Positions 1 to 56,818 of a stretch of DNA of 64,000 nucleotides are shown here, one piece after another. A program made the position numbers and the translations under genes. The notes beneath the pieces are model-generated. The model saw only the letters and a program-made list of their open reading frames with translations. It searched no databases and was not told the origin of the DNA. Positions within the stretch are counted from its first letter, which is position 1. Each line of letters starts with the position of its first letter. The stretch spans positions 35,289,501 to 35,353,500 of the forward strand of contig NC_091670.1 of the NCBI RefSeq assembly GCF_042453785.1, in the 5' to 3' direction. The DNA comes from Malus domestica. Its lineage: Eukaryota; Streptophyta; Magnoliopsida; Rosales; Rosaceae.

Positions 1-1632
1 TTGCTTCTCTGAAAGTGAGAAGTGCGAACTCTTATTCTGTTTTAGGGAAATCTAAGCATATAGAATCATAAACATCTTTTTACATGAGCAATGCTTATAA
101 TATGGCAATAGTCATAACCTTTTTGAGTAACTTAATTCGGCAGTGATTAAGATCCTGATTATTTTGTTGTTGGCAGTGGTGGCATCATTCAAAATTTTGG
201 ATTTGAGGTCAACCAGAATCTGACACCAGTGACAGGGCGTGTGATTGTCCCACCTGAGTTGAAGTTGGGTGCTTCTGATGGCAAGGTGATTAAGGTGACT
301 GTTGACAGAGAGAAATGTCAATGGAATCTGGTTGGGAAGACTCTTGTGGAAGGAAAACCAATCAAGTGCTGGGCCGTGCTTGACTTCAGCAGTTCTGATC
401 GTTTCAAACTGGACCCTAACCAGTTCATCTCAAAGCTCATCGCTCGGTGCAACAGACTGGGAATCAGAATGGGAGAACCTGTTTTGTATGAAACCACTTC
501 AATGAGGCCATTCTCTAGTGTTCAGATGCTTCGTCCACTGCTTGAAAGCGTCTATGAAAAGGCAAAAAAAGAAGGCAATGGCTACTTGCAGTTACTTGTT
601 TGTGTAATGTCTAAAAGAGACCCTGGTTACAAGCATCTGAAGTGGATTGCTGAGACTCAAATTGGTATAGTGACGCAGTGCTGCTTGTCAAATATGGCCA
701 ACAAAGCAAATGACCAGTACCTTGCAAATCTTGCACTCAAGATCAATGCCAAGCTTGGAGGCAGTAATGTAGAGCTAAATGATCGGCTCCCCCTTGTAGG
801 GGGTGCAGGCCATGTTATGTTTGTGGGGGCTGATGTCAATCATCCTGCCGCGCGAAACACAACAAGTCCATCAATTGCAGCAGTTGTTGCCACTGTAAAC
901 TGGCCTGCTGCGAATCGTTATGCTGCACGAGTTCGATCCCAGTACCATCGTGTGGAGAAGATAATGAAATTTGGAGACATGTGTCTGGAGCTTGTTGAAT
1001 CTTATGAGCGATTGAATAAAGTCAAGCCAGAGAAAATTATTATCTTCCGTGATGGAGTCAGTGAGGGCCAGTTTGATATGGTTCTCAACGAAGAGTTGCT
1101 AGATCTGAAGATGGCTTTTGAAAGTATAAAATACCATCCAACCATCACACTTATTGTTGCCCAGAAGCGGCACCATACTCGTCTGTTTCTGGAGAATCCA
1201 AGGGATGGGGGTTCCGCAGGCAATATATCACCGGGAACTGTTGTGGACACAACAATCGTGCACCCGTTTGAGTTTGACTTCTATCTTTGCAGTCATTACG
1301 GAGCCCTTGGAACAAGCAAACCCACACACTACCATGTTCTTTGGGACGAGCATCGGTTTACCTCAGATCAATTACAGAAGCTTATATATGACTTGTGCTT
1401 CACCTTTGCAAGATGTACAAAACCTGTATCATTGATCCCACCGGTGTACTATGCCGACCTCGTGGCATATAGGGGGCGATTATACTACGAGAGTACGGAG
1501 GGACAGTCTCCAGCTTCAGTATCCTCCTCCTCGTCCTCCTCCTCGACACATTCACCGCTGTCAGCGGCTTCTCTTGATGAAAGGTTCTGCAAACTGCACG
1601 CTGACTTGGAAAACATAATGTTTTTCGTGTGA
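1..1632 (+). CDS. AGO2: ARGONAUTE2-like protein, 3' portion (MID-PIWI exon), gene runs off the left edge
   Basis: Small-RNA-guided RNA slicer/silencing effector of the plant AGO2/AGO3/AGO7 clade; Arabidopsis AGO2 acts in antiviral silencing. Positions 1-176 are the end of an intron (acceptor AG at 175-176) and the last exon is 177-1632, ending in TGA. It encodes the end of L2, MID and PIWI. The slicer positions are Asp in GADVNHP (codon at 832), Asp in FRDGVSEGQ (1051) and Asp in YYADLVAYRGR (1456). This is the D-D-D triad known for Arabidopsis AGO2/AGO3, where most AGOs have D-D-H. A poly-Ser stretch lies near the C-terminus and the protein ends MFFV. The next gene is a tandem paralogue with the same final-exon boundary. 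Upstream exons are outside the window, so completeness cannot be judged. Confidence 0.93.
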
Positions 1633-2160
1633 AGGCCAAAGCATGATCCCGCAGTCTCTTTTTTGTACCTGCTGAAAAGGAGTTTGTGCGTGAATCTAAT
1701 GGGTTTCTGTGTCGTAATGTTATGTTTAGCGTTTTCTCTACTTCATACGTTCTGTGCTCACATGTCGTTTCGAATCATTTTGTGGATCTAAAACAGTGGT
1801 AAGTCCTTGTTATGAATGTGGGTCTCATATATCATTTTAAAGTTGTGAATGTAAGAATGTTGGATGACATGTATATTTGTGGGAATGGAAAGTTAATCTA
1901 TTTGTTAACGTCGTGCTTTGGTTACATGAATTTCCTTTTAATTTATGTTATTTTTTTACCTGTATTATTTACGTATAATATTAGAATCGCGAAAGAAAAA
2001 TGTTCTTTTTTTAATTCTCACTTGTTTCTAGCTACAATCGATCGATATCAATGATGTTTTGAAGTGCATACACAAGTACGAGTAATTGAATTGAGAAAGA
2101 GTTTTTTTTTTTTTTTTTTTGGAGACAATATTATTCTCATTTATTTAAGATGATTTTTTT

Positions 2161-2320
2161 AAGGAAATTTTAACGAAAAATTCTTAGTACCGTTCATTTT
2201 AACGAAAAATCACATTTTTACACTAAAAATGTCAATCCTAGTACTATTTACTTTATCATTTATTTTATCCTTAAAATTAAAACTCAAAAATTTCAAACAT
2301 TTTTTTATTAGTTTTCTTTC
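2161..2320 (+). mobile_element. MITE family A, copy 1
   Basis: About 155 bp non-autonomous element with imperfect terminal inverted repeats: AAGGAAATTTTAACGAAAAA at the left and ATTAGTTTTC at the right. The internal landmark CACATTTTTACACTAAAAA is shared with the other copies in this window. It sits in the AGO2-AGO2 spacer. Confidence 0.75.
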
Positions 2321-2494
2321 TTTTTTTAAAATCAAGTTTGGGGTAAAATGGGGATTAACACCAAAGCTACTGGGTTTCCCACCAAAAGCCCGAACTTTTC
2401 GGCTTCCACTACCAACGGTCTTCTCGGCGGTTGACCCTTCGCGACCAAGGCAATCGAGCAAGGGCAAGATGGTCATTCAATCTGCACCCTCGCA

Positions 2495-2500
2495 TATAAG
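2495..2500 (+). promoter_or_regulatory. Candidate TATA box of the second AGO2 gene
   Basis: TATAAG lies 75-80 bases before the ATG at 2575 and is followed by a purine-rich leader. Position and sequence fit a plant TATA box; the transcription start was not observed. Confidence 0.4.
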
Positions 2501-2574
2501 AAGAAAAAGAAGAAAGGAGTGAAATTTGAGGCCACTTTTCTCTCGATTTTTTGAGTTCGCTCCCGATTTTTCCA

Positions 2575-5500
2575 ATGGAAAGCAGCGGCGGCGGCGAATG
2601 GCGAAAAGGAAGATGGAGAGACAGTGACGGCGATGAAAGAGGGAGTGGAGGAGACAAAGAGATAGGAAGAGGCGGTTGGGGAAGTTATGGTGGTTCCAGG
2701 GGTGGTGGTGGTAGAGGGTCCCAGTACCACCGTCAACAACCACCGCAGGAGCAGCATGATAACAAGTGGGGCCGTCCGGGGAGACCTTCTCCATGGAGCG
2801 GTAGGCCCAACAGAGCGTGGGTGTCCACAGCGCCCACCCCTGCATCTCCAGCCCTAGCGAACTCTCCTCCTACTTCCCCTCCTCCTCCTGGTATGGATCC
2901 TCGAGAACTAATTGCATTTTTTTTAATCCCTAATTTTAATCTGATTAGGTTTTCCTGTTTGAGTTTGTATGTGTTACACTTGTATGTATATAATGAGAAT
3001 GTGGTGATATAATGTTTATATAGTGATTACAATAAGCCTGTTTGCAATCGCTTCTCAAGAAAGCACTTTATCTCATAAGAGCTTTTACTAGAATCGTTTT
3101 TATTAGAAGTACGTTAAATTTTTTGATATAAATCCAATTTCTTTTGGCCACTTAGTACTAGTGAGTGAGAGGTTTTAAGTTTGATTTTCTCTAAAGATGA
3201 ATTCAAACTAAATTACTGTGGCTTGCCCATTGTGAGGTTTAGCCCACTAAAAAAAAGGGAACTTTAACGAAAAGCACATGATACTGTTCACTTTAATGAA
3301 AAACCACATTTTTACACTAAAAAGTCAATCCTGGTACTATTCACTTTACCCTTTATTTTGTCCTTATCATTAAAACTCAAAGTTTTCAAGCCCTTTTTAT
3401 TAGTTTTCCTTAATAAAAATCCAATTGCTTTTGAAGCGTTTCCAAGTGCTTTTGCAACTCAAAAGCGTTTTTATAACAAGTTTTTTCTTCCAAATTTTGT
3501 CAAAAAAAATTTAAAGGCACTTCCGAACATTGAACTGGTCATTTGGTTGGTTTTACTGAGTTTTTGCATAAATATGTTCACAGAGGAAAAAATGCGTTTC
3601 AGTAGTCTAGGGTTCGAGACTTGGTGCGATGGCAAGTGCCTCCGCCCATGAGCGGTAGGTCTCGGGTTCGAGACTTGGGAGCATCCTCTCCATAAATGGG
3701 GGTAAGGCTAGCCAACATTCACCTCTCCCAGACCCTGCTTAAAGCGGGAGCCTTGTGCACTGGGTACGACTTTAGTAGTCTAGCATTTTTTAGTTTGCAT
3801 AAACAGTCACCACTGAGGATAACACCTAATGTTTTGTTTATTTTTCTAAATAGATACTTTTGTTCCTCGATTGCGATCTCTGGAAATTTCGAAACAGACG
3901 CCTCCTTCATCTTCTTCGGGCAATGCAGACAAGAATCTCTCAGCAAAACGGCCAGACAACGGAGGCACAAAAGCTATCCAAACTGTTATGCTTCGTTCTA
4001 ATCATTTTAATATCTCGTTCAATCCTGAGAGTATCATAATGCACTACGGTGTTGATGTCAAATCAGAGACCCCTGCTCCTAATCATATGAAAATTTCCAA
4101 GTCTGAGCTCTCTGCAATCAGGAAGAAGCTATCCTCTGATAAACCTACGGACTTTCCATTGTCAAGTACTGCATACGATGGTGAAAAGAACATCTTCAGT
4201 GCAGTGCGGTTGCCCACTGGATCATTTAAGGTAGAGGTTCCTGATGAAGAAGACACGCGGTTTACTACATACATATTTACTATAAAGTTAGTAAACGAGC
4301 TCAAGCTTTGCAAGTTGAAGGAGTACATGAGTGGCCACCTATTGTCTATCCCTCGTGATATATTACACGGTATGGATTTGGTGATGAAAGAGAATCCAAG
4401 TAGGCGCTTGATTGCTGTTGGGCGAAACTATTACCCTGTGGATACTAGTCTAAACGATGACCTTGGACATGGTATTTCTGCATCTAGAGGGTTTCAAGAT
4501 TCTGTAAGGCTCACTTCCCAAGGTCCTTCCCTGTGTCTTGACTACTCAGTCCTGGCATTTTATAAGCGCTTGCCAGTTATAGATTTTCTCCAAGAGCAGA
4601 TTACGGGTTTTACTTTAAATAATTTCGAGAGGTTTAGGAGAGAGGTTGAGCGTGTGTTGAGAGGACTGAAAGTAACTGTGATGCACCGTAAAACCAAGCA
4701 AAAGTACATCATCAAGGGGCTGACTGATAAGAATGCAGGAGATATTACATTTTATGATGTAGACATAGATGGCCAGTTTCCGCCAAGGAAAGTTAGACTT
4801 GTCGATTATTTCAGGGAAAGATACAAGGGAATCCAGTATAAAGACATTCCTTGCTTGGATTTGGGGAAAAATGGTAGAAGGAACGATACACCTATGGAGT
4901 TCTGTGTGTTAGCTGAGGGGCAAAAGTATTCAAAGGAGCGCTTGGACAGAGAAGCAGCCATGATGTTGAGGAGTAGGTCATTGGCTCAACCGCGTGATAG
5001 GCAGAGGAAGATATGCGACATTATACAATCTGATGATGGACCCTGTGGGTAAGTAAATTTATGTTCTCTCTTGTGGTTTGTGAGTCCGATTTTGCTAAAC
5101 TTGCACAGTTAGCAGGCAGTTGGTTTCTCTGAAGGTTGAAACCAGTATTCTGTTTGATTCTTATATATATGGCGATAGTTATAACCATTTTCAGTAAAGT
5201 AATCCTGTATAAAAACTGCTGTCATTATTAAGTATGATCCTGTGTTATTGGCAGTGGTGGCATAATTGAAAATTTTGGAATTGAAATTAACAAGAATATG
5301 ACACCAGTAACAGGGCGTGTCATTGGCCCACCAGAATTGAAGTTCGGTGCTTCTGATGGCAAGGTGAATAAGGTAACCGTTGACAGAGAGAAATGCAACT
5401 GGAATCTGATTGGAAAGTCTGTAATGGAAGGAAAACCAATCAATCGCTGGGCTTTACTTGACTTCACCTGTCATGATCGATTTGTACTGAACCACGGCTT

Positions 5501-6731
5501 CATCCCAAAGCTCATCAATCGGTGCAATGAGCTGGGAATCAGAATGGAAGAGCCTCTTTCATACCAAGGCACTACAATGAGACCCTTCTCTAGTGTTCAG
5601 ATGCTTCGCCAGGTACTTGAAAGTGTTAATGAAGAGGTACACAAGAAAGGAAAAGGCTACTTGCAATTAATTATTTGTGTAATGCCTAGAAGAGATCCTG
5701 GTTACAAGTATCTGAAGTGGATCTCCGAGACTCAAATTGGTATAGTGACACAGTGCTGCTTGTCAAATATGGCCAACAAAGCAAATGAAAAGTATCTTGG
5801 AAACCTTGCACTTAAGATTAATGCAAAGCTTGGAGGTAGTAATGTAGAGCTAATTGATCGGCTCCCCCTCTTTGGGGGTGCAGGCCATGTTATGTTTATG
5901 GGGGCCGATGTCAATCATCCTGCTGCGCAAAACAAAAAAAGTCCATCAATTGCGGCTGTTGTTGCCACTGTAAACTGGCCTGCTTTGAATCGTTATGCTG
6001 CACGAGTTCGACCCCAGCAACACCGTAGCGAAAGGATATTGAGTTTTGGAGACATGTGCCTGGAGCTTGTTGAAACTTATGAGCGATTGAATAAAGTCAA
6101 GCCAGACAGAATTGTTGTCTTCCGTGATGGAGTCAGTGAGGGCCAGTTTGATATGGTTCTAAATGAAGAGTTACTAGATATGAAGAGGGCTTTCGGATGT
6201 AAAAAATACTATCCTACCATAACACTTGTTGTTGCCCAAAAGCGGCACCATACTCGTTTGTTTCTAGAGAATGTGAAGGATGGGAGTCCAACATGCAATG
6301 TGTTACCGGGAACTGTTGTGGATACAACAATCGTGCACCCGTTTGAGTTTGACTTTTATCTTTGCAGTCATTATGGATCCCTCGGAACAAGCAAACCCAC
6401 ACACTACTATGTTCTTTGGGATGAGCATAGGTTTACCTCTGACCAATTGCAGAAGCTCATTTATGACTTATGCTTCACCTTAGCAAGGTGTACTAAACCT
6501 GTAGCTTTGGTACCACCGGTATACTATGCTGACCTTGTTGCATATAGAGGGCGGTTATACCATGAGAGTATCGAGCGACAGTCTCGAGATTCAGTATCTT
6601 CCTCCTCCTACTATTCCTCATCATCATCAGCAGCAGCAGCATTGGCATCGTCACCACACTCAGTGGCTTCTCTAGATGATAAGTTTTATAAATTGCATGC
6701 TGACCTGGAAAACATAATGTTTTTCATATGA
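2575..6731 (+). CDS. AGO2: ARGONAUTE2-like protein, complete tandem copy (3 exons, 995 aa)
   Basis: Exons 2575-2890, 3854-5048 and 5255-6731 join in phase with GT-AG introns to 996 codons including the stop. Exon 1 gives a Gly/Arg-rich disordered leader (about residues 1-105, several GGGGRG/GGSRG runs), typical of AGO2 and often arginine-methylated. Exon 2 gives the N domain, linker 1 (RGFQDSVRLTSQGPSL) and PAZ (from about FLQEQITGFTLNNFERFRR). Exon 3 gives MID and PIWI with the acidic triad D722 (MGADVNHP), D795 (FRDGVSEGQ) and D930 (YYADLVAYRGR), so a D-D-D catalytic set. A Ser/Ala-rich insert precedes the C-terminal MFFI. The ATG at 2575 was chosen because it opens the Gly-rich leader just after a leader sequence with a TATA-like box. 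Intron 1 carries a MITE and a SINE. It probably binds 5'-A small RNAs and works in antiviral silencing, by analogy with Arabidopsis AGO2. Confidence 0.95.
3150..3253 (+). repeat. SINE remnant (family with GTGAGAGGTTTTAG core)
   Basis: The stretch with GTGAGTGAGAGGTTTTAAG and GCCCATTGTGAGG matches the repeats near 61.98 kb (+) and 62.2-62.3 kb (-). The phrase around GTTTGATTTTC resembles a degenerate B box. It is truncated and lies in AGO2 intron 1. Confidence 0.45.
3255..3412 (+). mobile_element. MITE family A, copy 2 (in AGO2 intron 1)
   Basis: Near-consensus copy: it starts GGGAACTTTAACGAAAAGC, contains CACATTTTTACACTAAAAAG and CTGGTACTATTCACTTTACC, and ends TTAGTTTTCCTTA. It is almost identical to the copy at 52378, so both are probably recent insertions. 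Confidence 0.8.
3611..3773 (+). mobile_element. tRNA-derived SINE with perfect 10-bp target-site duplication (in AGO2 intron 1)
   Basis: Flanked by identical AGTAGTCTAG at 3601-3610 and 3774-3783. Inside are an A-box-like GGTGCGATGGCAAGTG and a B-box-like GGTTCGAGAC. The body ends CTGGGTACGACTTT, a common plant SINE 3' end. The 163 bp length fits a SINE. The clean duplication implies a fairly young insertion into the host intron. Confidence 0.85.
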
Positions 6732-8445
6732 AGGTCGAAGCTCGTTCCCATGATCTATTTTTTTTTTGTGGAACAGGACGGATATGGTTCTGTAAGTTGG
6801 CAAACCAGGATGCAATTCCAACTTCCTGAAAAAGGGTTTGTGTGTGAATCTAATGGTTTTTTTAATCGAAATGGTATGTTAAGCATTTTCATTGTAGTTA
6901 GTATGTTAGATCTTGTGTGTTCTTTAGTGGTTCCAAATCGTTTTGAGCACTTGTGTTTCTTTCTTGTGTGTGATATGTATGAATCGAGTCGAAATGGTAC
7001 AAAACACAGAAGGTTTAAATTAGAAGTAGGCTCCAGACACCGTTGTCTTTACTGTCGTTCTTTCTGCTCATAAAATGAATGCTGCAAGTTTTAGGTCTGT
7101 GTAGAGTTTATAAATAGGAAGGAAATACACTGTTGGGGCGATTTTTGGATTATTTACAAATACAATACATGTTGGGAAATAATTCCTGCACTCCTGTCTA
7201 CTTGTTTTCCTTGATTCTTCTTTGATTATTTCTATCCGAATGCTAAAAATCTACAAGGGTGTGTAGGTGGAGAAAAAAGTGGTGTAGAAATCACTTGCCT
7301 ATGTGTCTACAAAATTTGTAATTACCTTTGCATCGAAAGACAATATATCTAAAAGTTTATGGCTCTCCCTCTAGACTTGTGGTCCTTTCCCTAGTTTCCT
7401 TAGATTCCTGGCATGTGATGGTTGGCCAATTCTTGGGGCTCTGTTAGGACCACAAAAATGTGCAGGTCATCTGCAGACATATAAACTTGGAATGGATTTC
7501 TTGTTTCTACTGGAGAGATTCCCCTTTTATTATGTATAAGGACAATGGGAGAGAAACATGTCATGATCAGGGACTAAATTTGGATATATTTGTTGATTAG
7601 GGGGTAGATTCTAGTTCTGTTTCTATTTGTGCAAACTTATCAACAAGTGCACGAGTCTGGAAGTTACTTCTGTCATTGGTTGCACTTGTTTGTGATAGAT
7701 TTCTTTGAGCGGATTGGCATGACAGGTCATTCTGGGTGGTGGCCCAAATTCTTTAATCATTGTGGGATTTGAGGTATTTGGGTGGTGAGTGAAAGGTTTT
7801 GGGTATATGTGGACATGGCAGGTTCAAACTTTGAGATTGGGATGTTGGTCGTTTTTGTTACTTGTTTGGGAGATATTTTTGCTGGAGTTTTAATAAAACA
7901 CTCCTGATACTGTTCATTTTTAATGAAAAACCACATTTATACATTTCCCTGGTACTATTCACTGTCCCTTTAAAAAGGGTTTTTCATTAAAAGGGAAGTT
8001 TTTTTTTTACTTTTCGTTAGTTTTCCTTATTTTTGCACCAGAACGTCTGTATATAAGTGGATTGATGGTACTTGCCTTTGGTGACAGTTTGGGTTAAATT
8101 CTTGCGTTTGTAACATTGTCTGTATATAAGTGGATTGAACAGGCTCTGTGCTCATAATTTTTTGGTTGGATAAATAATCTTTTACCCCTCAAATATGCTG
8201 CACTATACAAAAATAGCCATTTTTGGAAGAAAGAGAACCATTACAAACAAACATGTGAACGCACATACACACGCCAACAAAGAAAAAATGAAACTGCCTC
8301 CAAGGAAGTTTCACTAATTTGGAACAAATTTAGGTCTCACGGTGGAGAAAGACTTGGGCGTCACCGAGAGTATATCCTTGCATGATTACAACACTCATCG
8401 TATGACCTCCGCTAACGTGTAAGAATCCCCCTCACAGTGATGCCT
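6732..8445. other. Intergenic region between convergent AGO2 and LIN-like genes
   Basis: Holds the AGO2 3' UTR (about 6732-7100), a rearranged copy of MITE family A (7884-8029), and the downstream region of the LIN-like gene. No coding potential is seen. Confidence 0.5.
7884..8029 (+). mobile_element. MITE family A, copy 3 (internally rearranged)
   Basis: Starts GGAGTTTTAATAAAACACTC, keeps TGATACTGTTCATTTTTAAT and AAAAACCACATTTATACA, and ends TTAGTTTTCCTTA. The middle is shortened compared with other copies. Confidence 0.6.
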
Positions 8446-11400
8446 TTAGTTGCTTGTGATGATTGAAATAAGCTCATTAGCCGTCCATGTCACTAAGGAC
8501 AGGTTCTGAAGTTTCCTAAGCAACTCTTTGCCCACTGATGATAGCATAGGGACGTTTTGATGAACTGAAATTTTTCACGACACAAATAAATTAATTAATT
8601 AATCAAATTATTTAAAGGAAAACTAATGAAAATGGGTTGAAAACTTAGATGTTTAATGATAAGGACAAAATAAAAGGTAAAGTGAATAATACCAGAATTG
8701 ACTTTTTAATGTAAAAATGTAGTTTTTCGTTAAAATGAACAGTATCAGGAGTTTTTCGTTGAAGTTTCTATTATTTAACTTTAATTTTGGAAAGACATAC
8801 CTGAACTTTTTGCTAGATTCAGCAATGTATATGAAGCAAGCACTCTTTCCTCCACATCTCTGTCATAATTCAGTGATTCTAGCAGCTGAGGCACAAGAAC
8901 CGAGCATGCCATGGACCCTAAATCTTCATCTCCGACTGCATCGACAAACCTACTCATCCACGACACCGTCACAAGGCTCGATCGCGCTAAACTCGGGATG
9001 CCATTCGCCATGGAATCCGAAAGGGCCACGAGTAGTTTCCTGTTGCCGTTTTTTAACAAAACAGTGGCTGTTTTCCTTTGCCAATTTTCCGTTGCTGCTT
9101 CGTCTTCGTTCTGATTTTTCGGATCACATAAAAATGGTGCCATTATTTGTTTGTTTTTCGAAAAATTTCAGCTGGTTTGGGGTAGTAGAAAGCTTACCGA
9201 GTGCGCAAAACCATCCACAACATTTTCTTTGAAGTGAAATGAATTTCTTGGCCAATGACTGTAACCGGCTTGTTGTAAAAGCCCCTGTTCTGTTGATGCC
9301 TCGCCGGTGTTAGAAAACCGGCCTCCCAACATTAAGAGAGCTCTTGACGATCGTTGCTGGACTTTTTTGCTGCATGTTCGACTGCTTAAAGCTTCTATGA
9401 TTGCTTCAATGGCTTCTTCTCTATATACACTGCTCCTGAAAGGGTCTCCCTGCAACAAAACTGCTACTCCATATGGGAACTATTCAAGATATATATAAAA
9501 CCCTAGGGCAAAGATTTAAGTACTTATCTGAACAGTTTGGTTGCCAGAAGTTGAAATGAGTTTAGAAAGATTTTACAATTTCTACGAGAAAGTTGCGTAA
9601 TCACGAAGGACGGATTTACCATAAGATCAAGCTGAAGTAAAACGACTGCAATCAACGGGCGTTCTTCAAGTGGAGCTCTCTGCAGATAGACCAACAAAAT
9701 CTGCATTGTGTTAACGCCGCCGGATCCTTCTTTCAGTCCATTTAGGATTTCAGTGATTTTTGTTCGTCTGCGAAGAATCATTCAGTTGATCAAAATGTGA
9801 AAAGATCATATAAAACGTACAAGAAAAATGAAAAGAGTTCAAAACAAATCCATACCTACTAAGGCATAGTATTTCGATCAACAAAGCGAATGCGGAGCCA
9901 GTACCATTTCCAAGTACAATGAGTTCAAGAAGAGAAGCCTTGTTGAGAAAATCAGCCAAGTAGTTTCGACAGCTTCCATCAGCTCGAACACAACGTGCAA
10001 TGACTGAAGCAACGTTGTTCCTCTCACGAGTTTCCCCTCTCTCGATTTTTGTCACCAGAAGGCTCAACCCTCCAAGAGAAACTACCTCTCTTGCATTCTC
10101 CAAGTTTCGGTCTTCATCAAAACCAGTAAGAAGCTGGTCTAAAAGGTACAACGCCGCCACTTGAGGACTGCAACGAACTGTGAATAGCGTCTGCAACTGA
10201 TCTCCAAACTCTAGTACTCGAAGGACTAGTGCCACCCATCCGACAGATATCATCTGTTTTGCCTTTGGCTTCAACAAGTAAAGCAGAATTGCAGCTTTCA
10301 AAAATAGACCACTGCTTTTTAGAAGTCTCATAAGAAACTCAAGCTGTGGATCCGAGTTCAGTATGATATGTCTAATCATCTTGTTTCTCGCTACAAATTC
10401 AGCTAAAACCGAGATTACTAATTCCAAAATTTCGTCATTACTAGAAACAAACAACACCTCCAGCATTCCCTGAATAACAGGTGGCTTTGATAGCTCAACC
10501 TCAATGACAGGATCACCATGGGAGTCCAACCAAGCCTTGGTAATCACACGAATTGCACTTTCGCAATCGCTTAGATTATCGGAGGAGTAGATAGTGCTAA
10601 TAGCCCGGCTTAAGTTGCTTAGAGGTGGAAGATGGGAGTTATCTTGGTTACGGATTGAATTGTTCTTGACCATGAGGTTCTTGTTCACCAAGCATTCTGT
10701 TGGTGCATTCTGGCATCTAAAGAATCCAAAATGGCCCGTCTTCTGTGCCTCCGACTCAGGCCATAGCGCGATTACTGGATTTCTATGATTTTCGCTTGAT
10801 GACCTTCTCCGACTAGACCTTTCTCCACTCTGACAAAACCAGAAAACGGTGACAATGTGAATTCTCCCTGCAACATTCAATTACTTACGAAAAATGAATG
10901 TAGTAAAGAACTGAGATGAAGACAGATTCACTCACATGAACATAACCGAGATGGTTGTAATCATCTTCATCTACACACAACTTTTCCACCTCATCTAGAC
11001 CCCAAGTATCGTTCAAAACTCCATTTCGATGATTGAGCTCCACAGATTTTCGCTCAAGCGCGGGGCCAAACACAGCGTGGTATCTTCAGTGATTTCCGAA
11101 GCCATCAAACAAGATACACAATTACAGCACAAACTACAAATCAAATATCCTTTCAAAATGTTTTGCAAAAGTGATTAAAATGTTTTCATATATTAGTACT
11201 ACTTACAAATTTTTGTTGAGCGAGGAATGTGAAGTGTAAGAATCCGATGATCTCCTTCTTGATGATCTGCAACTGCGTATCGAAGAAGGCAAAGGTATAG
11301 TAGGAGGAACAGGACGGGCCTCAGCTCCAACTTGAAGCCACTCTTTGTAGTACAAAGCAAACCTTGTAGTTCCCATATCCATTTGTTCATCGTACGCTCT

Positions 11401-12222
11401 TGCCACGGCTTTCATTTTCTTCTCCTTCTCGCCGTCCTCTGAGCTCGAAAGAACATCCATTTCCCTGGCATACCAAATCTTCACATGTAAAAGATGTGGA
11501 AGAAAGAAATGCTCCCAAAGATCAGGAAGAAAATGTGTTCTTGCCAAACTCGCTGAATCACAGAACACTTGAAGCAATTGCCTCGCCGAAAGCCGGTCAT
11601 TTTTCTCAATCTTGTGAACGATCGACAAGTAGAGTTGAGCACAAGCAGAGAGATGAGAATTGCTAGATTTTGAGGAACCAACAACGTTCAAAACCCGAAT
11701 CGTATTCTTCACTTTTTTCGTCCTAACTTCCATACTTTCCGACCATTGATCTTCCACCAACTTATCAACACTTTCAATACCCAGTTCCAAGTTTCCCAAC
11801 ATCCCATTATCCAGATCCTTTTTCTTTCTCACCAAGCAAGCCCTGCACTTTTCGCGGATTGTTTCCCGAAAACCCTCATCCTTCACATACCTCCCAACAT
11901 AACCGCTAAGTATCGAAACCACAGCTCTAGTGGTAACTTCATCAATGGCAGCAGGCTCACTAGCCATCGAACTCTCCGAAACCAATGACTTGGAATTCGA
12001 CCTCTCCGAAGTAGTACTCACCCTCCTCGACGACCCTTTTCGCGTCCGAGCCTTGTGGTGCGGAAAATCGTAACTTTTTCGATCCTGGCAGATGTGCACA
12101 GGCAGAAATAGAGCCGTAAGTTCATCTCTTTCTCTGTACATCAATGGTTTCTGGCCTTTCGGGTACTTATTTTTTTCTAGTCCGACTCGTTCTTGGGTGA
12201 GCAGTTCCTTCAAGGAAGCCAT
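8446..12222 (-). CDS. LIN/CERBERUS-like armadillo-repeat protein lacking U-box and WD40 (7 exons, 988 aa)
   Basis: Exons on the minus strand, 5' to 3': 12222-11207, 11083-10936, 10829-9856, 9767-9620, 9449-9198, 9110-8801, 8564-8446. All junctions are GT-AG and in phase, total 989 codons with stop. Exon 1 carries the LIN-type N-terminal region (EVTTRAVVSILSGY, SACAQLYLSIVHKIEKND, LWEHFFLPHLLHVKIWY). Exons 3-6 carry the helical armadillo-like region (LLVYLQRAPLEERPL, YREEAIEAIIEAL). Named homologues such as legume LIN/CERBERUS are E3 ligases for symbiosis and add a U-box between these parts and WD40 repeats after them. Neither is visible here; the protein stops right after LVTWTANELISIITSN. 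Ligase activity is therefore doubtful and a scaffold role is possible. Intron 6 holds a MITE. Confidence 0.85.
8614..8768 (-). mobile_element. MITE family A, copy 4 (inside LIN-like intron 6)
   Basis: Reverse-oriented copy: starts AAAGGAAAACTAATGAAAAT and ends GTTTTTCGTTGAAGTTTC on the plus strand. It occupies most of the 236 bp intron between exons 6 and 7 without touching the splice sites. Confidence 0.75.
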
Positions 12223-13278: not shown

Positions 13279-13314
<36 letters not shown>

Positions 13315-30421: not shown

Positions 30422-30458
<37 letters not shown>

Positions 30459-30473: not shown

Positions 30474-30801
30474 ATTTTTGCAATAATAGTTGAAAACTGG
30501 AAGTTGCAGAGTGTGAAGATTGAAAGAGATGGAGACAATTGAGAGGAGAGGTTACCTTGGATTGGATGAATCCTCTCGGGATTTAAGTCCCTATTGTTCC
30601 TTTCATTATATCCTGTCTGGGTTTTCCAGAGAAGCGAAGATGGAGTGTGCGCCCCTCTGTTTCTGCCATTATCATAAACCCTAGAATTTGGGGGTTTTAG
30701 CCGCCTCTTATTTTTCTTTATTTTTTCAAATCTTCTTATTTATTTATTTATTTTGTAATTCTGGTGTTCAAGGACTATAATACTCAATTTACACTTATTC
30801 A

Positions 30802-41990: not shown

Positions 41991-43454
41991 ATGGCAACAC
42001 CCCTCACCACTACCTTCCTTTTCCTTCTAACCGTTGCAACATTCTTCAATTTCAACCAAACCCTAGCCAGCCATAGCTCCAGTTCTACTTCCCTGGTGCT
42101 TGGACTAACACATTCTCAGGTTTCCCTTCCAAGCCCGAAAGCATCTTCTTACTCGAAAAAGATGCCATCACAAGTGTCAGACATGGTAGAGCCATTGAGG
42201 GAAGTGAGAGATGGGTATTTGATATCTCTTAGTTTAGGGACACCCCCACAAGTCACTCAAGTATATATGGATACTGGGAGTGACCTAACATGGGTTCCTT
42301 GTGGCAATCTTTCTTTTGTTTGCATAGATTGTGATGACTATAGGAACAACAACCTAATGCCCACTTTCTCCCCTTCAGCTTCTTCTTCGTCTCTTAGAGA
42401 CCTTTGTGGTAGCTCCTTTTGCATTGACATCCATAGCTCAGATAACTCTATCGATCCATGCACCATTGTTGGATGCTCGCTTGCTACCCTTCTTAGGGAC
42501 ACATGTCCTAGACCATGCCCTTCATTTGCTTACACTTATGGCGCAGGTGGGGTTGTCCAAGGGACACTTAGTAGAGACACACTAAGGGTTCATGGAATTA
42601 GTACTACCCCCAACAATATTGTCACTATGGAAATTCCCAAGTTTTGTTTTGGGTGCATCGGGTCTACCTATAGAGAGCCTATTGGGATTGCAGGGTTTGG
42701 TAGGGGAGCGCTTTCCCTCCCATCCCAGTTAGGGTTTCTACATAAGGGCTTCTCTCATTGCTTCTTGGCTTTCAAGTATGCAAACAACCCTAATGTTTCA
42801 AGTCCACTAGTTGTAGGAGATGTTGCTATTTCTTCCAAAGAAAACTTGCAATTCACTCCAATGTTGAAGAGTCCCATGTACCCTAACAACTACTACATTG
42901 GTATAGAGGCCATCACAATAGGTAATGCCAGTGCAGTAACACAAGTGCCCTCAAGCTTGAGAGAATTTGATTCACAAGGAAATGGGGGTTTGCTGATTGA
43001 CTCAGGAACCACTTACACTCATTTTCCTGAGCCATTATACTCCAATCTTCTCTCCGTTCTCGAGTCGGTGATTTCGTATCCTAGAGCCAAGGAAATGGAG
43101 ACAAAGACCTCTTTTGATCTTTGTTATTTAGTCCCATACACAATGAATAATACTATCACAAATCAGGATGACCTACAATTTCCTCCAATAACTTTCCACT
43201 TCTTGAATAATGTGAGTCTTGCTTTGCCCCAAGGAAATCACTTCTATGCCATGGGAGCTCCAGTAAACTCGAGTGTGGTGAAATGCTTGTTGTTCCAAAC
43301 AATGGATGATGGAGATTACGGGCCAGCCGGGGTTTTCGGTAGCTTCCAGCAGCAAAATGTGGAGGTTGTGTATGACTTGGCGAAAGAGAGAATTGGGTTT
43401 CAGGCAATGGATTGTGCTTCAGCTGCAGCCTCTCAAGGACTTCACAGAAACTAA
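41991..43454 (+). CDS. Secreted nepenthesin-type aspartic protease (A1 family, 487 aa, intronless)
   Basis: Pepsin-like endopeptidase. Both catalytic motifs are present: D94 in YMDTGSDLTW and D337 in LLIDSGTTYTHF. An N-terminal hydrophobic stretch (about residues 5-26, LTTTFLFLLTVATFF...LA) is a signal peptide, so it enters the secretory pathway. A Cys-rich insert follows the first active site (CGNLSFVCIDCDDY ... CGSSFCIDI ... CPRPCPSF), as in plant nepenthesin-like enzymes, and IAGFGRGALSLPSQLG is a family signature. The C-terminus has GVFGSFQQQNVEVVYDLAKERIGF, also typical. A TATA box lies 54 bases upstream. The plant-specific subgroup function is unknown; relatives act in the apoplast in defence or development. 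Length is normal and no defect is seen. Confidence 0.93.
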   Translation: MATPLTTTFLFLLTVATFFNFNQTLASHSSSSTSLVLGLTHSQVSLPSPKASSYSKKMPSQVSDMVEPLREVRDGYLISLSLGTPPQVTQVYMDTGSDLTWVPCGNLSFVCIDCDDYRNNNLMPTFSPSASSSSLRDLCGSSFCIDIHSSDNSIDPCTIVGCSLATLLRDTCPRPCPSFAYTYGAGGVVQGTLSRDTLRVHGISTTPNNIVTMEIPKFCFGCIGSTYREPIGIAGFGRGALSLPSQLGFLHKGFSHCFLAFKYANNPNVSSPLVVGDVAISSKENLQFTPMLKSPMYPNNYYIGIEAITIGNASAVTQVPSSLREFDSQGNGGLLIDSGTTYTHFPEPLYSNLLSVLESVISYPRAKEMETKTSFDLCYLVPYTMNNTITNQDDLQFPPITFHFLNNVSLALPQGNHFYAMGAPVNSSVVKCLLFQTMDDGDYGPAGVFGSFQQQNVEVVYDLAKERIGFQAMDCASAAASQGLHRN

Positions 43455-45674: not shown

Positions 45675-48600
45675 CTATGAGCAACAAGACGAGCTTGCCA
45701 CCCTTTCAGAAGGTCTGTCCACAAGAACCATTCCTGCGGGGTTCTGCACAGGCTGCACTCGAGGTAATCTCTTTGCTGTACCCCAAAACAGAAGAAAACC
45801 GCAATCAGATCACTAAATTACATTATAACAAAAACCAAATAAGCAAAAAGACATGCGTAAATCCATTTTTTAACGGTTAATTCATTGCGCTGAAATGGGT
45901 AGATGCTATTGCTCCTATAAAGACCTTATAAAAGTACCTATCTCATAGAAAATGTCATTGACATTGTCTGCAGTTTTTGCAGAGGTTTCCAGGAAGAAAA
46001 GACCATTCTCTTGAGCATATGATTGTGCATCCTACAACAGCAGCAGCAAATACGAGCAGCACTCAGAATGAATATACATATAAGTTATAACAAATAGATT
46101 CTAGTCAAGCAAGCTCCACTAAAAATCGTACATTATTATACAGTTCCTTTTGTTTGTCCATTCTTTCAAAGTAACCTCTTCAAGGAAACAAATATAAATT
46201 TTAATTTCACATTATTTAAATCTTTTTCACACATATTTTCATACTTCCGAAACACTAGTTTCAGAAAAGTGCAGTACCACAAATTGAGATATACAACCTG
46301 GAGTACATGAACTACAGTCCACAAGCGTAGGGAAATATGCTTAGTTGCTTCAAACTTCAAAACTAAATATCAACATTGGAAAGATGAAAAGGGGCAGAGA
46401 AAAAGACAGCTTGCAGTTACCCATGTCATATAATACGTGCAGAATGGAGAACTGGAGGATATTACTATAAGAATGAAACTGTAATAATGTTGTCCAACAC
46501 TAATATATAAGCATACTTTATACAAGAAGAGCGAATGATTCCCAAAATATATTCATAACATTCTTCAAAATTTTAAATTCCATTCATCTGGAAAGCTGTT
46601 ACTTTTCAAGAATAAGGGGTTTGGACAGGAAAAATATCTAGTGACATAAAAGTTCAACCAGTAAGCAGAACAAAAGAAAGCAGAAAGTAATGACTTACCT
46701 CTGCGGCCACTTTCCTGGCCTCCACCAGATCCGCTTTATTACCAGCTAGTGCCATAACCATGTTTGGGTTACCTTGTCATGTGAGAAAAAAATAAAATTA
46801 TTAAAAATTAATGTCATAATGGGAAAACTAAAGAAGCCAGTACCAAAACTTAGCATACATAAGTTTCCATGCCCCATCAATTAAATAGAGGAATGTCTGC
46901 AGGGTACAATAAAGTGATAAAAAATACCTTGTGACTTGAGTTCGAGGACCCATTTTTTTGCTCGCTCAAATGAGGCCTACAAGAAAAGTAAAGTTAAATT
47001 TCTATTTAAGATGTATTTGACTTAATATATCACATTAGCGAAAAAATGAGACACAAAAGCAATAAATGATAAGATATCCAATAGAAACAACGTTCAACTA
47101 GGGATGACTAAAAAGCTTTAATTCTAGTCAATGTTCTAAAAATCGGCCTAGGCGCTACACCGTGGTCATCCTCCCCGATTCAGTCCCAATCGGGAGGAAA
47201 ATCGGAGAAGACAATAAGCAGGCGCCTGAAGAGCCTGGGCGGGCGCCTAAGGGTGCTAGGCAGCAACTAGGGCGCTTAGGCAGGTGCTGGAGGCTCAATA
47301 GGTCTGAGCATGGTTGAGAAAGGAAAGACGCAGGGTCTCTGTTTTTAATCTGGAGAATGAGGAACACAGTTTTTTTTCGAGGAAGAAGACAATGCAAAGG
47401 GAAACTTCCTCTGCCAATCCCACGTGACAAACCTATTTTTAATTGTTGCCCAATACCAACGTGCCACCTACCATCCCACTTGTTGAATGGGTTTGAAAAA
47501 CATTATGAAACTAACATATAAAGCCCTTAAACTTTACACATATATCCATATTTATAATTATTTATTCAAAATATTTTTATTTTTTTAAGTTCATAAGCAC
47601 TTATTTAATTATTAAGTATAAACATACACTTATTTACACGAAATATAATAGATTTACTTAAATCCGCCTAGTCAGCCTAGGCGCCCACCTAGACCCCACC
47701 TAGGCGCTAGGCCCCAGCCCGCCGCCCGACTAGCACCTAGCGTCTTTTAGAACCTTGATTCTAGTGAATGAATGCAAATTCAACATCGACAAAGAAATAA
47801 ATTTCATGGAAATCTAAAATTTTCAAACCTGGAAAAAATGGTTTTCAGAATACTCACTTGATTTGTTAAATCATACACAATAATTGCAGCAGCAGCTCCT
47901 CTGTAATACATTGGCGCCAAACTATGGTACCTCTCTTGACCTGCTGTATCCCAAATCTCAAATTTTACAGTTGCATCGTTTACAGCCAATGTTTGTGAGA
48001 AGAAGGCAGCACCTATTGTTGATTCCTGTATCATACAAAAAACGGTAATGGTCTGGACCAAAAAGAAAAGGCTTCCTTTGAAAGTTATAGAACAAACCTG
48101 AAATTCAATGAATTGTCCTTTTACAAAGCGCAACACCAGACTAGACTTCCCAGCTCCAACATCCCCAAGAAGCACCTGAACCAGTACATCAAACATCAAA
48201 CTGGTAATGACGAAATGCAATACCCAAAGAAAAATAATAAACAAATGACTAAAAATTATACATCACATTATGCTAAGCTGCATATGCCTACATATATTCG
48301 AATTAGTGACCAGTATATTAGCAAATATCTTTCAAAGAAAGCGCAACCTTTATGTTGACATGGACTTCTGCTTTTACATTTGTATTCCTACTTATAATAT
48401 GGTAGCATTGTGGCAATACTGATATCATATACCGAGAAAGCTATGAGACTTGCACCAGTCACGGTATGTTCATTTGTTCTCAGAGACCCTCGGGTTAAAA
48501 CATTGGAGCCAGACCGAGATAAACAAGAATACGGAAGAGTAATAACTTTGGTCTAAACAGATATGAATCCTAATAAGCCTTCAGTCCCATTTTTTCTCAT

Positions 48601-49254
48601 TGCAGCGAGGATGCTAAAATAAATTAAAACCAAGACCATACACAAGCAAGAATACAACTATGGAAAAACAAAAGAGCAAAATTTCGGTGTTAAATGATGT
48701 CGTAATTGACTACCATTCCAGGGTTTAAAGAAAAGAAAAAAAAGATACTGTTAACCCACATCCTTTATGTTAATTAAAGCAATCAAATCCGTTAATTAAA
48801 GCAATCAAATCCGTTAATTAAAGCAATCAAATCCATTAATAACGAAACATAAATCCAAATATGAACTGGCCTAAAAATACACAATCATCTGAACATTACG
48901 CAGAAATCATGCAGACCAAAATTCACAGCTGAACAAATCAGACCAAAATTCACAGCTGAACAAATCAGACCCAAATCAGAATATCCAAAATCCAAACAAA
49001 TTCCATGAGAAACAAACCAAACCCACATCACAATTCTCATTGAATCGCACACAAACCGATCAAAAACACAAGATTTCCAAAACCCCAATTGAAATTACAC
49101 AAACCCCATACAATACAGGACAGCATCAAAGACCAATCAGAATCGCACAATTTCATAAAATTGATTAGAAAGCAAGCTCAAGAAAAGGGCTTTTCGCAGA
49201 AGCAGAAACGCGTACCAATTTGGCATTGATGTTCTTGTTCCCGGCGGTGGCCAT
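45675..49254 (-). CDS. RABF2: RABF2-type (ARA7/RHA1, Rab5) small GTPase (7 exons, 200 aa)
   Basis: Minus-strand exons 49254-49216, 48175-48098, 48025-47858, 46976-46928, 46772-46699, 46031-45938, 45775-45675; all GT-AG, phases close to 201 codons with stop. Rab5 GTPase controlling fusion and cargo sorting at late endosomes/prevacuolar compartment. Motifs: P-loop GDVGAGKSS, switch [32 protein letters not shown], and a C-terminal CCS for double prenylation and membrane anchoring. The start [13 protein letters not shown] matches ARA7. Intron 3 (46977-47857) holds a foldback element; intron 1 has two small tandem repeats. It lies near TLC, mTERF and NPR genes, as in Arabidopsis chromosome 4. Confidence 0.95.
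47131..47758. mobile_element. Foldback/Mutator-like element with 9-bp duplication in Rab intron 3
   Basis: Flanks TTCTAGTCA (47122-47130) and TTCTAGTGA (47759-47767). Ends contain GTTCTAAAAATCGGCCTAGG and, reversed, GTTCTAAAAGACGCTAGG, an inverted repeat rich in GGCGCCTAGGCGC-like words. GC-rich ends with an AT-rich centre suggest strong secondary structure. It is a widespread plant repeat type. Confidence 0.7.
48771..48840. repeat. 22-bp tandem repeat, three copies, in Rab intron 1
   Basis: GTTAATTAAAGCAATCAAAT followed by CC is repeated three times in a row. Confidence 0.85.
48912..48970. repeat. ~28-bp tandem duplication in Rab intron 1
   Basis: CAGACCAAAATTCACAGCTG followed by AACAAAT occurs twice. 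Confidence 0.8.
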
Positions 49255-49770: not shown

Positions 49771-50323
49771 GAGTAAATTGTAGCAATGGTCCTTCAACTT
49801 TAATCAAATTGGAGCAATGGTCCCTCAACTAAAAATCCATTACCATTGGTCCCTCAACTCATCAAAATGTGTAGCTATGGTCCTTTTCGTCAACTTCGTC
49901 AAAATTTTGTCAAAATAAATTATGTTGGAATGATCATTGCTACAATTGGGGTCCCTCAACTAATCAAAACGTCTAGCTATGGTCTTTTTCGTCAATTTCG
50001 TCAATTTTTTTTCAAAATGAGTTATGTTGGAAGGATCATTGCTACAATTGGATTAAAGCTACCATTACTCCAATTGAGTTAAAGTTGAGAAACCATTTCT
50101 CCAGTTGGATTAAAGTTGAGGGACCAATGGTAATGGATTTTTAGTTGAGGGATCATAACTGCACGTTTTGATGAGTTGAGGGACCAATGATAATGAATTT
50201 TTAGTTGATGGACCATAGCTACACGTTTTGATGAGTTGGAAGACCAATGGTAATGAATTTTTAGTTGAGAAACTATTGCTCTAATTGAGTTAAAATTAAT
50301 AGACAATTGCTACAATTTACTTT
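49771..50323. repeat. Palindromic repeat family B, copy 2
   Basis: Same layout as the copy at 13364: GAGTAAATTGTAGCAATGG left, CATCAAAATGTGTAGCTATG inside, and GAGTTAAAATTAATAGAC then GCTACAATTTAC at the right. It is longer because of internal duplications of GACCAATGGTAATGGATTT-like units. Likely to fold back as one long hairpin. Confidence 0.75.
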
Positions 50324-53937: not shown

Positions 53938-53980
<43 letters not shown>

Positions 53981-54307: not shown

Positions 54308-54316
54308 ATACATGAA

Positions 54317-54515: not shown

Positions 54516-54524
54516 ATACATGAA

Positions 54525-55173
54525 TAAGCTCAATCTCCACTTCGATTTTCACTGCGTGACATACACTATCCAATCATATAGTACAATTATATGTACATAT
54601 ATGCGGATACTGTTAAATATTGTGTTTAACTTCTCTCCTATTAAGTTGATTTTTAATATGTATGAGAGAGTTCATGGGAAAAATTGCATAACATCTGTTT
54701 AATTCCTCTGTATATAACATGACTCAGCAATCTGCATTATGCATTTTCAAAACTTTAAGAAAATAATTTCATGACTGTAGGAGATAAAAGTTGTGGCATG
54801 GATACACCGTTGTTATTACTACAGGACGCTACAATGACGATGTATTTGTGTTATATGCAAGTTGTTCTCGCTAGCTACATGATCGAACGATAATATTTAA
54901 ACCATAGACCATGAGAAGTTATTAAGACAAAAAAAACACATAATTAGAATCGTTAGTAAGTGAATCCAATAACATGAAACTCAAAACACAAATGGGGTTT
55001 ATCTAGTCAAAAGGAAAATATAACAAATTAAGGGGTTTATAAATTATGTACAATCAACCAAATGAAGTCAATGAAATCTCAACCTCTCTCTTTTTCTATC
55101 TTATGGTCATATAAATAAATAGAAAATATCAATGTAAATTAATTAAGATGATGATGATCACTAATTAATTTAA
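54525..55173. other. Spacer downstream of the trihelix gene
   Basis: AT-rich; probable 3' UTR of the minus-strand trihelix gene at its right end. Nothing else recognised. Confidence 0.4.
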
Positions 55174-55973
55174 TCAATTTGGAGGTGGCTGTTGGTTCTT
55201 GTTGGAAGCCAAGTCATGGATGGAATTTGCAAGCTTGTTAATGGCATCAATGAGGCCATTAATGCCTTGCCTGTTGATCTCAGTCTTAGTTTCCTCGATC
55301 TGTAGCCTTCTCTCATGCAAACTCAACATCTCTCTGTGCCTCCTCTCTTCTCTCTCCTCACAGCCCTGAAGTGCTTCTGCAATCACGGAAGCACCTCCAG
55401 CGATGGCAGTTCCCACTTCACTTGAGGTGCTTGCGCTCACAGTTCCACTGGTTCCTCCTTGATCTCCACCGCCACCGCCACCACCTCTTCCACTTGCCCT
55501 CCTCCTCCTTTTAGCTGGTGAGTCTGAATGCTCACTTGTATCAGAATCTGATATTATTTCACACGTCTCCCAATAGTAAAAATGTTGTTGCACTAATATT
55601 TCAACGAATCGATGTATACTAACTCATCATATTATTAATCATTACCATGCAATGCACACAATAATTATCAATACTACCCTCTTTTCTTTTCCATGAAATA
55701 ATAGAAAGTTCATAAATAAATCTTTTATTAGTGGACAAATTGGCCTAAAATTTAACAGAACTTATGGTTTGATTGGAATATATAAGTACCAATAAATTAG
55801 TTGTTTAATTAAGCTTTTACTTCATGACAAGAGATTAAACATATTAACGCTAGGGAGCTGCTATTGGTAATCCAATTAACTCTTCCTCTAAGTGCTTTTA
55901 GTGCTAATAACTTATGCATTTTCTTCCCAAATTTGGTGGAATAATAAAAATGAAAAATCCAATAATTAATGGG

Positions 55974-56025
<52 letters not shown>

Positions 56026-56818
56026 CTACTGTGGGCATCACCTGTGCGTATTGGAGAGCAGGTGGTGGTTGGGCTGCCAGTGGAGCTGGTGGAAGAAGTG
56101 GCAATGCTGCAATTGTTGGAACTGAGATTTGATGATGATGATGTTGCAGAACTGGAGGAGGAGGAGGAGGCAGTGAAGAAGAAGGCTGCTGATGAACACC
56201 AGTGGTACTAATTATAGGCCTCTCCAAACCATACCCAATATTTGGACTAATCCCAACATTTGAACCAGAAACAGAAGCTCCTCCCACCACCTGATGACCT
56301 CTAATCTGATAACCACCACCACCAGCAGCTTCTCTCCTCTCCACCACATCCACCAAAGCCTCATAAATCTGAAGCACCATATTTGTAGGCAAGTTCCTCT
56401 CCTTCCTCTCATTCTTCTCAAGCTTCCAATAAGATGCTCTACCTTCTTCTCCTTTCCCTTCTCCCACATTAGTAATCTTCCTCTCATATTCTCTCACTTT
56501 CTTGTAATCCCTCATGAGATTGTCCCACTTGTCATTGCACTGATTTTGGCTTCTCAAACAACCTTTTTTCCAACAGTAGTCCTCCACCCACTTCCACCTG
56601 AGCTCAGCTGGTTTCCCCATTGATCTTGTTGTCTGATCAGTTCCTCCACTACTACTACTACCCCCTTCCCCACCCCCACTTCTCTTCATTCTTCTCTCAT
56701 CATCCATCTTCTTTGCCTCTATCAGAATCATTGTCTCCCCCACTGTCCAGTTCCCTTTCCTGTAGTCCCTCATGATCACACTGCTAGTACCATTTCCTCC
56801 TTGTCCAGCCATCACCAA
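55174..56818 (-). CDS. Trihelix (GT-type) transcription factor, At1g31310-like (2 exons, 388 aa)
   Basis: Exons 56818-56026 and 55547-55174, joined in phase (donor GTACTC, acceptor ATCAG). The DNA-binding trihelix/SANT-like domain sits at about residues 15-125: YRKGNWTVGETMILIEAKK (helix 1), ELRWKWVEDYCWKKGCLRSQ and QCNDKWDNLMRDYKKVREYE (helices 2-3, three spaced Trp). After it come SYWKLEKNERKERNLPTNM, a Gly/Val-rich linker and a Pro/His-rich stretch (residues about 210-262). Exon 2 has the basic cluster KRRRRASGRGGG, likely a nuclear signal, and a predicted coiled coil (EEREERRHREMLSLHERRLQIEET) for dimerisation. The start could be residue 3 (56812). The intron begins with a (CT)n tract directly after the donor. 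Confidence 0.9.
55975..56022. repeat. (GA)n microsatellite abutting the trihelix splice donor
   Basis: About 23 GA units on the plus strand; on the gene's strand a (CT)n tract starts immediately after the donor GTA. Confidence 0.9.

What the first reader, a model, noticed from the sequence alone, without database searches (positions are those of the whole stretch)
1..56818. One collinear block unites two separate Arabidopsis gene clusters
Gene order here is AGO2-AGO2-(LIN-like)-NPR-NPR-mTERF-TLC-(protease)-Rab5-trihelix. From memory, Arabidopsis has AGO2-AGO3-TLC-trihelix at At1g31280-At1g31310 and ARA7-TLC-mTERF-NPR4 at At4g19640-At4g19660. The window interleaves both sets, with a single TLC gene as the shared anchor. 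The simplest reading is that Arabidopsis lost alternate genes from two whole-genome-duplicate copies, while this lineage keeps the ancestral order.
Basis: partly seen in the sequence, partly recalled or inferred. Interest (0 to 1): 0.8.

Follow-up and report, generated by a model that had tools for sequence, protein, structure and literature searches.

The report
Ancient plant gene neighbourhood kept intact
This stretch of what is very probably an apple chromosome keeps side by side a set of neighbouring genes that thale cress seems to hold only in scattered, thinned-out copies, an ordinary outcome of whole-genome doubling followed by gene loss.

Summary
The gene order is real. Window genes in order: AGO2-like x2, a LIN-like ARM-repeat gene, NPR3/4-type x2, mTERF, TLC, aspartyl protease, RAB5, trihelix. 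The window lies on contig 10 of a 651-Mb, 19-contig genome (apple, by inference). A collinear duplicate on contig 5 (nine Ks values, 0.08-0.28) has counterparts of 8 of the 10 genes; it has one AGO2, and mTERF is removed by a deletion of about 1.8 kb.

Locus numbers in papers put AGO2 and NPR genes close together in grape, poplar (two chromosomes) and tomato, so the joined order is most likely ancestral to core eudicots. The AGO2 tandem (Ks 0.38) looks too young to be the pair behind AGO2/AGO3. TLC is not a unique anchor: an older NPR3/4-TLC pair sits on contig 9, so I cannot prove which genome duplication separated the Arabidopsis segments; the Brassicales beta event is my preference.

No Arabidopsis genome could be searched. 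The phenomenon (fractionation) is well known; only this instance seems undescribed (one narrow search).

The parts
1..1632 (+). AGO2-like gene A (3' part; MID/PIWI exon in ORF 151-1632; 5' exons lie upstream of the window)
   Evidence: Pfam Piwi E 3e-94; N/PAZ exon at -1342 to -140
1679..1699 (+). miR403-like target site in the presumed 3' UTR of AGO2-like gene A
   Evidence: 1 mismatch, 0 matches in 100 shuffles; miR403 sequence recalled
2575..6731 (+). AGO2-like gene B (Gly-rich first exon, N/PAZ exon in 3850-5049, MID/PIWI exon in 5238-6731)
   Evidence: Pfam; MID chain 4g0m 'Protein argonaute 2' E 1.6e-37; first exon and start codon read by eye, not modelled
6833..6853 (+). miR403-like target site in the presumed 3' UTR of AGO2-like gene B
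   Evidence: 3 mismatches
8784..12222 (-). LIN-like ARM-repeat gene (ARM_LIN, ARM_LIN_2nd, ARM_LIN_C; no U-box or WD40 hit in the three ORFs scanned; not spliced)
21722..23980 (+). NPR3/4-type gene a (4 exons, 586 aa)
   Evidence: NPR4 142 bits vs NPR1 118 bits; tree
25331..27883 (+). NPR3/4-type gene b (4 exons, 584 aa)
   Evidence: NPR4 132 bits vs NPR1 101 bits; tree
28635..30419 (-). mTERF gene, single exon, 594 aa; no counterpart found on contig 5
   Evidence: genome-wide search
34689..37504 (+). TLC-domain gene (8 exons, 267 aa)
   Evidence: model; Pfam PF03798 E 1.7e-28
41991..43454 (+). A1-type aspartyl protease, single exon, 487 aa
   Evidence: after contig 5 (89%) the next match is 38% identical
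45675..49254 (-). RAB5 (RABF2 type), 7 exons, 200 aa, C-terminal CCS
   Evidence: model; RABF2b best hit
55174..56812 (-). trihelix gene, 2 exons (exon 2 assigned by eye; SH4-type by recalled resemblance to At1g31310)
   Evidence: PF13837; contig 5 copy 94%, next match 35%

Best explanation
The window is one copy of a gene neighbourhood already assembled in the common ancestor of core eudicots (AGO2 - LIN - NPR3/4 - mTERF - TLC - protease - RAB5 - trihelix). The apple lineage copied the block in its own late genome duplication (contigs 10 and 5, shown by collinearity and Ks) and kept most of it on both copies. In the Arabidopsis lineage two further duplications (beta, then alpha; inferred) made four copies, each of which lost most members: At1g31280-31310 kept AGO2/AGO3-TLC-trihelix, At4g19640-19660 kept RAB5-TLC-mTERF-NPR4, At5g45110-45130 kept NPR3-mTERF-protease-RAB5. 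The step of loss, deletion of one of two duplicates, is shown here for mTERF on contig 5. That the same process made the Arabidopsis pattern is inferred.
For: All ten genes confirmed in order. Contig 5: counterparts of 8 of 10 genes in the same order and orientation; nine Ks values 0.077-0.281 for these eight genes. mTERF: no contig 5 copy among the 11 matches of the genome-wide search; contig 5 DNA matches window 28569-28659 and 30456-30671 with about 6 bases between, so about 1.8 kb is gone and only about the last seven or eight codons remain. Three other species join the two halves: grape AGO2 VIT_10s0042g01150 and 01180 with VvNPR1.2 VIT_10s0042g01250; poplar AGO2 Potri.012G118700 and 015G117400 with NPR3/4 Potri.012G118300, 012G118500 and 015G117200; tomato AGO2a/2b/3 Solyc02g069260/270/280 with NPR3 Solyc02g069310. 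At4g19650 and At5g45113 (both mTERF) are reported as block duplicates. 3 of 3 Arabidopsis segments in window order (segments chosen because they match).
Against: Apart from a few solved structures no Arabidopsis sequence was available, so most Arabidopsis orthology rests on locus number and annotation. AtNPR4 cannot be placed with contigs 10/5 rather than 9/17 (AU p 0.255 and 0.333); the best tree joins the two apple groups without AtNPR4, with support 56/25 only. The contig 9 NPR3/4-TLC pair means At1g31300 and At4g19645 could be products of the older gamma triplication. mTERF, TLC, protease, RAB5 and trihelix were not checked in grape, poplar or tomato, so only the AGO2-NPR join is shown there, by gene numbering. 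I name no LIN counterpart in any Arabidopsis segment.
Confidence: 0.8

Rival explanations
1. Gamma version: the At1g31 segment descends from the same gamma-triplication copy as the window, but the At4g19/At5g45 pair descends from a second gamma copy, whose apple relic is the NPR3/4-TLC pair on contig 9 (contig 17 keeps an NPR gene). Fractionation is still the process, but between older copies.
For: NPR3/4-type gene and a TLC gene about 2.1 kb apart on the same strand on contig 9; Ks to the window copies 1.73 (TLC) and 2.3-2.5 (NPR), old. Further along, RHD3-like and RAB5 matches on contig 9 (about 5.7 and 9.1 Mb away) and contig 17 (about 7.2 and 11.5 Mb away). A distant aspartyl protease (30-32% identical) lies 0.2-0.3 Mb from the NPR genes of contigs 9 and 17. 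AtNPR4 placement unresolved.
Against: mTERF, LIN and trihelix searches give no match near the contig 9 pair, and the nearest contig 9 Piwi match is 2.7 Mb away. The nearby protease is less similar to the window gene than copies on contigs 6, 12, 14 and 3, and the closest other RAB5 copies in exon 3 are on contigs 2 and 15. Needs apple to have lost mTERF and RAB5 beside the second copy while Arabidopsis kept them.
Confidence: 0.2
2. Transposition version: in Arabidopsis the AGO2/AGO3 and trihelix genes moved out of the block, with TLC duplicated along the way, without whole-genome duplication.
For: Single-gene transposition is common in Brassicaceae (general knowledge). No call supports it for these genes.
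Against: Several genes moving to one new site in the old order is unlikely; At4g19650/At5g45113 are reported as block duplicates.
Confidence: 0.05
3. Coincidence: members of large gene families meet by chance in each species.
For: RAB and aspartyl protease families are large here.
Against: AGO2 and NPR genes lie close by number in grape, poplar (two chromosomes) and tomato; the window genes fall in particular clades rather than anywhere in their families.
Confidence: 0.01

Closest known systems
Fractionated (diploidised) whole-genome-duplication blocks, as described for Arabidopsis, maize and Brassica (recalled)
   Same: Interleaved gene sets on duplicate segments, collinear with one fuller outgroup block; deletion of single duplicates
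   Different: Nothing in principle; this particular block, joining AGO2 with NPR3/4, was not found described (one search, 0 papers)
Late duplication of the apple tribe, homoeologous chromosomes 5 and 10 (recalled)
   Same: Contigs 5 and 10 are collinear here, nine Ks values of 0.08-0.28
   Different: None seen; the window is one half of such a pair
Arabidopsis block pair At4g19650 / At5g45113 (PLAZA, cited in PMC3471360; passages seen)
   Same: Same mTERF-NPR-RAB5 neighbourhood by locus number
   Different: The window has the AGO2 and trihelix flanks in addition

Membership tests
Fractionated whole-genome-duplication block | Same gene families in the same relative order in the duplicate segments | tested here: met
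   Contig 5: counterparts of 8 of 10 genes, collinear. Arabidopsis: 3 of 3 chosen segments in order by locus number, some loci recalled
Fractionated whole-genome-duplication block | Duplicate genes share one age | tested here: met
   Nine Ks values, 0.077-0.281, median 0.196, for the eight genes shared by contigs 10 and 5; not testable for Arabidopsis
Fractionated whole-genome-duplication block | Complementary loss between duplicates | tested here: inconclusive
   Contig 5 lacks mTERF and has one AGO2; I did not look for genes lost from contig 10; Arabidopsis pattern by locus number only
Fractionated whole-genome-duplication block | Outgroups keep one unfractionated block | tested here: inconclusive
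   AGO2-NPR closeness by locus number in grape, poplar, tomato; the rest of the block not checked there
Fractionated whole-genome-duplication block | Arabidopsis genes are the true orthologues of the window genes | not testable with these tools
   No Arabidopsis genome held; AtNPR4 placement unresolved
AGO2/AGO3 clade | MID domain closest to AGO2 among the short MID chains; miR403 target after the stop | tested here: met
   AGO-B only for MID (whether other plant MID chains are in the library was not checked); target sites; no AGO tree was built
NPR3/4 clade | C-terminal region closer to NPR4 than to NPR1 | tested here: met
   tree
Canonical plant RAB5 (RABF2) | Closest to RABF2b; C-terminal prenylation cysteines | tested here: met
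LIN (U-box/WD40 E3 ligase) | U-box and WD40 domains | tested here: inconclusive
   Only ARM_LIN domains in the three ORFs scanned; the gene was not spliced and the rest not scanned

The most novel reading that the evidence does not exclude
The linkage of antiviral AGO2 with the salicylate receptors NPR3/4 has been held together by selection in core eudicots (for instance as a shared regulatory neighbourhood for immunity), and Arabidopsis, the model in which both were studied, is a lineage that broke it.
Probability: 0.05. Interest if true: 0.6.

Novelty: new member of a known kind. Interest (0 to 1): 0.28.

Why it matters
It gives a likely ancestral context for three Arabidopsis segments that hold well-studied immunity and trafficking genes, and it warns that orthology from Arabidopsis to apple for AGO2/AGO3 and NPR3/NPR4 is probably many-to-many: the apple AGO2 pair and NPR pair look like local duplications unrelated to the Arabidopsis pairs. 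The contig 10/contig 5 pair is a clean place to study gene loss after duplication.

Tried and rejected
Rejected: chance clustering (the AGO2-NPR closeness recurs in grape, poplar, tomato). Rejected: AGO2-AGO2 here as the counterpart of AGO2-AGO3 (Ks 0.377 between the window copies, 0.196 from A to contig 5, 0.351 from B to contig 5: a local duplication before the late apple duplication, the second copy missing on contig 5; gene conversion could also lower Ks and was not tested). Led nowhere: AU tests for AtNPR4; a literature search for other grape block members (swamped by unrelated papers); tRNA and Rfam scans (nothing); Pfam on the ORF at 19344-19841 (nothing); papers naming At1g31280, At4g19660 and synteny together (0 papers). 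Not done: trees for TLC, RAB5, mTERF, AGO or trihelix with Arabidopsis, because their sequences were not at hand (RABF2b apart, whose structure was matched but not put in a tree) and I did not write them from memory; intactness of the contig 5 copies was not modelled.
Full report
What is in the window. The window lies at G000:C10:35289501-35353500 of a genome of 651,096,769 bases in 19 contigs. Size and contig number, the collinearity of contigs 5 and 10 and paired hits on 13/16, 9/17 and 2/15 fit apple, Malus; that name is my inference from recalled facts. Pfam and spliced models give, left to right: AGO2-like A (+), AGO2-like B (+), LIN-like (-), NPR a (+), NPR b (+), mTERF (-), TLC (+), aspartyl protease (+), RAB5 (-), trihelix (-). 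The first AGO gene begins upstream of base 1.

Which relatives they are. For AGO-B, the only AGO gene searched against solved structures, the one short MID-domain chain under E 1e-20 is 'Protein argonaute 2' 4g0m (from Arabidopsis, recalled); the best full-length match is argonaute 10. No AGO tree was built. A miR403-like target site (sequence recalled) follows both AGO stop codons and is found once in the contig 5 stretch with the AGO gene. Both NPR genes score higher against NPR4 than NPR1, and the tree puts contigs 10, 5, 9 and 17 with AtNPR4 and contigs 2 and 15 with AtNPR1. RAB5 is closest to RABF2b. In the trihelix search only contigs 10 and 5 give close matches (100 and 94%); the other six are 30-35%. 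The TLC gene carries the heptapeptide YHVYLHY, which is what the published forward primer for the peanut homologue of At1g31300 encodes; the reverse primer reads EMLVIVVP, which is only similar to the window protein. This is a slight sign that At1g31300 belongs to this TLC family.

The contig 5 duplicate. DNA alignment and protein mapping show a collinear block at C5:37.565-37.616 Mb with counterparts of 8 of the 10 genes; whether each is intact was not modelled. Nine Ks values for these eight genes (LIN in two parts) are 0.077 to 0.281, median 0.196, consistent with one late duplication. The second AGO2 and mTERF are missing there. The genome-wide mTERF search lists 11 matches, none on contig 5, and a permissive local search finds no remnant of the protein. 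Contig 5 DNA matches window 28569-28659 and then 30456-30671 with about 6 bases between, so about 1.8 kb is gone and only about the last seven or eight codons of mTERF remain. This is gene loss after duplication, seen directly.

Ages of the tandem pairs. AGO-A against AGO-B gives Ks 0.377, AGO-A against the contig 5 AGO 0.196, AGO-B against the contig 5 AGO 0.351. The AGO pair therefore arose before the late apple duplication, and contig 5 lost one copy. NPR a against NPR b gives 0.653. Both values look far too small for a split as old as that between apple and Arabidopsis (inference), so neither pair should correspond to AGO2/AGO3 or NPR3/NPR4. Gene conversion could lower such values and was not tested.

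Arabidopsis. No Arabidopsis genome could be searched. Locus numbers seen in passages of papers: AGO2 At1g31280, At1g31300 as an expressed sequence of unknown function, trihelix At1g31310, ARA7 At4g19640 and RHA1 At5g45130, TLC At4g19645, mTERF At4g19650 and At5g45113, described as block duplicates, NPR3 At5g45110, aspartic protease At5g45120. Recalled, or seen only in a listing: AGO3 At1g31290, NPR4 At4g19660. Beyond the window, the next gene found on contig 10 is an RHD3/Sey1-like GTPase; from memory RL2 is At5g45160, which would extend that segment (listing only). At5g45140 and At5g45150, recalled as lying between RHA1 and RL2, have no counterpart that I identified. The order of the matching genes agrees with the window in all three segments, chance 2/6, 2/24 and 2/24; the segments were chosen because they match, so these figures describe and do not test.

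Other species. Grape: AGO2 VIT_10s0042g01150 and 01180, VvNPR1.2 VIT_10s0042g01250 (its NPR3/4 type is recalled). Poplar: AGO2 Potri.012G118700 and Potri.015G117400, NPR3/4 Potri.012G118300, 012G118500 and 015G117200. Tomato: AGO2a, AGO2b, AGO3 Solyc02g069260, 270, 280 and NPR3 Solyc02g069310. By gene numbering AGO2 and these NPR genes, which Arabidopsis keeps on different chromosomes, are near neighbours in all three. This is the strongest evidence that the joined order is ancestral. It covers only this join; the other genes were not checked in these species.

A complication. The TLC search found a second, more divergent TLC gene on contig 9, in exon pieces covering residues 1-267, about 2.1 kb from an NPR3/4-type gene on the same strand. 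Ks to the window copies is 1.73 for TLC and 2.3-2.5 for NPR, near saturation and compatible with the gamma triplication (inference). RHD3-like and RAB5 matches lie on contig 9 about 5.7 and 9.1 Mb away, and on contig 17 about 7.2 and 11.5 Mb from its NPR gene; a distant aspartyl protease (30-32%) lies 0.2-0.3 Mb from both NPR genes. Against this, the closest other RAB5 copies in exon 3 are on contigs 2 and 15, and mTERF, LIN and trihelix have no match near the contig 9 pair. So TLC alone cannot anchor the Arabidopsis segments to one post-gamma duplication. AtNPR4 could not be assigned (AU p 0.255 with the window clade, 0.333 with contigs 9/17; the best tree joins the two apple groups first with support 56/25). 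I prefer the beta duplication because only the contig 10/5 block has mTERF or close relatives of the protease and RAB5 beside NPR and TLC, and because two post-gamma duplications would give four Arabidopsis segments, in line with At1g31/At2g35 and At4g19/At5g45 (the At2g35 segment is recalled).

Verdict. The phenomenon is well known; this instance was not found in print in one narrow search.

Noticed in passing
G000:C5:37.62-38.23 Mb: The RHD3/Sey1-like gene, seen at one place on contig 10 (C10:35.361 Mb), has many copies or fragments spread over about 0.6 Mb of contig 5, and short RAB5 exon matches lie in the same stretch (C5:37.77, 37.84, 37.98 Mb): apparently a local amplification on one homoeologue.
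   Followed up: no
L051 (G000:C9:11095001-11103500): NPR3/4-type gene and a TLC gene about 2.1 kb apart on the same strand: probably an older duplicate of the NPR-TLC part of the block. No TLC hit beside the contig 17 NPR gene.
   Followed up: partly
window-relative -13.4, -9.4 and -6.1 kb (L033, L034): Three tandem copies of a Cys-rich sequence upstream of AGO2 on contig 10, one on contig 5; the one copy scanned is weakly gamma-thionin-like, 24 bits against a cut-off of 25.1.
   Followed up: partly
window 13448-13646 and 49848-50051: Two tandem arrays with similar 102-base units, probably one repeat family present twice.
   Followed up: no
window 19344-19841: 166-aa minus-strand ORF that looks like a Harbinger-type transposase fragment by eye; no Pfam hit up to E 1.
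   Followed up: partly
L032-L033, window-relative -20559 to -19210: O-fucosyltransferase-like ORF upstream of the block (Pfam O-FucT).
   Followed up: no
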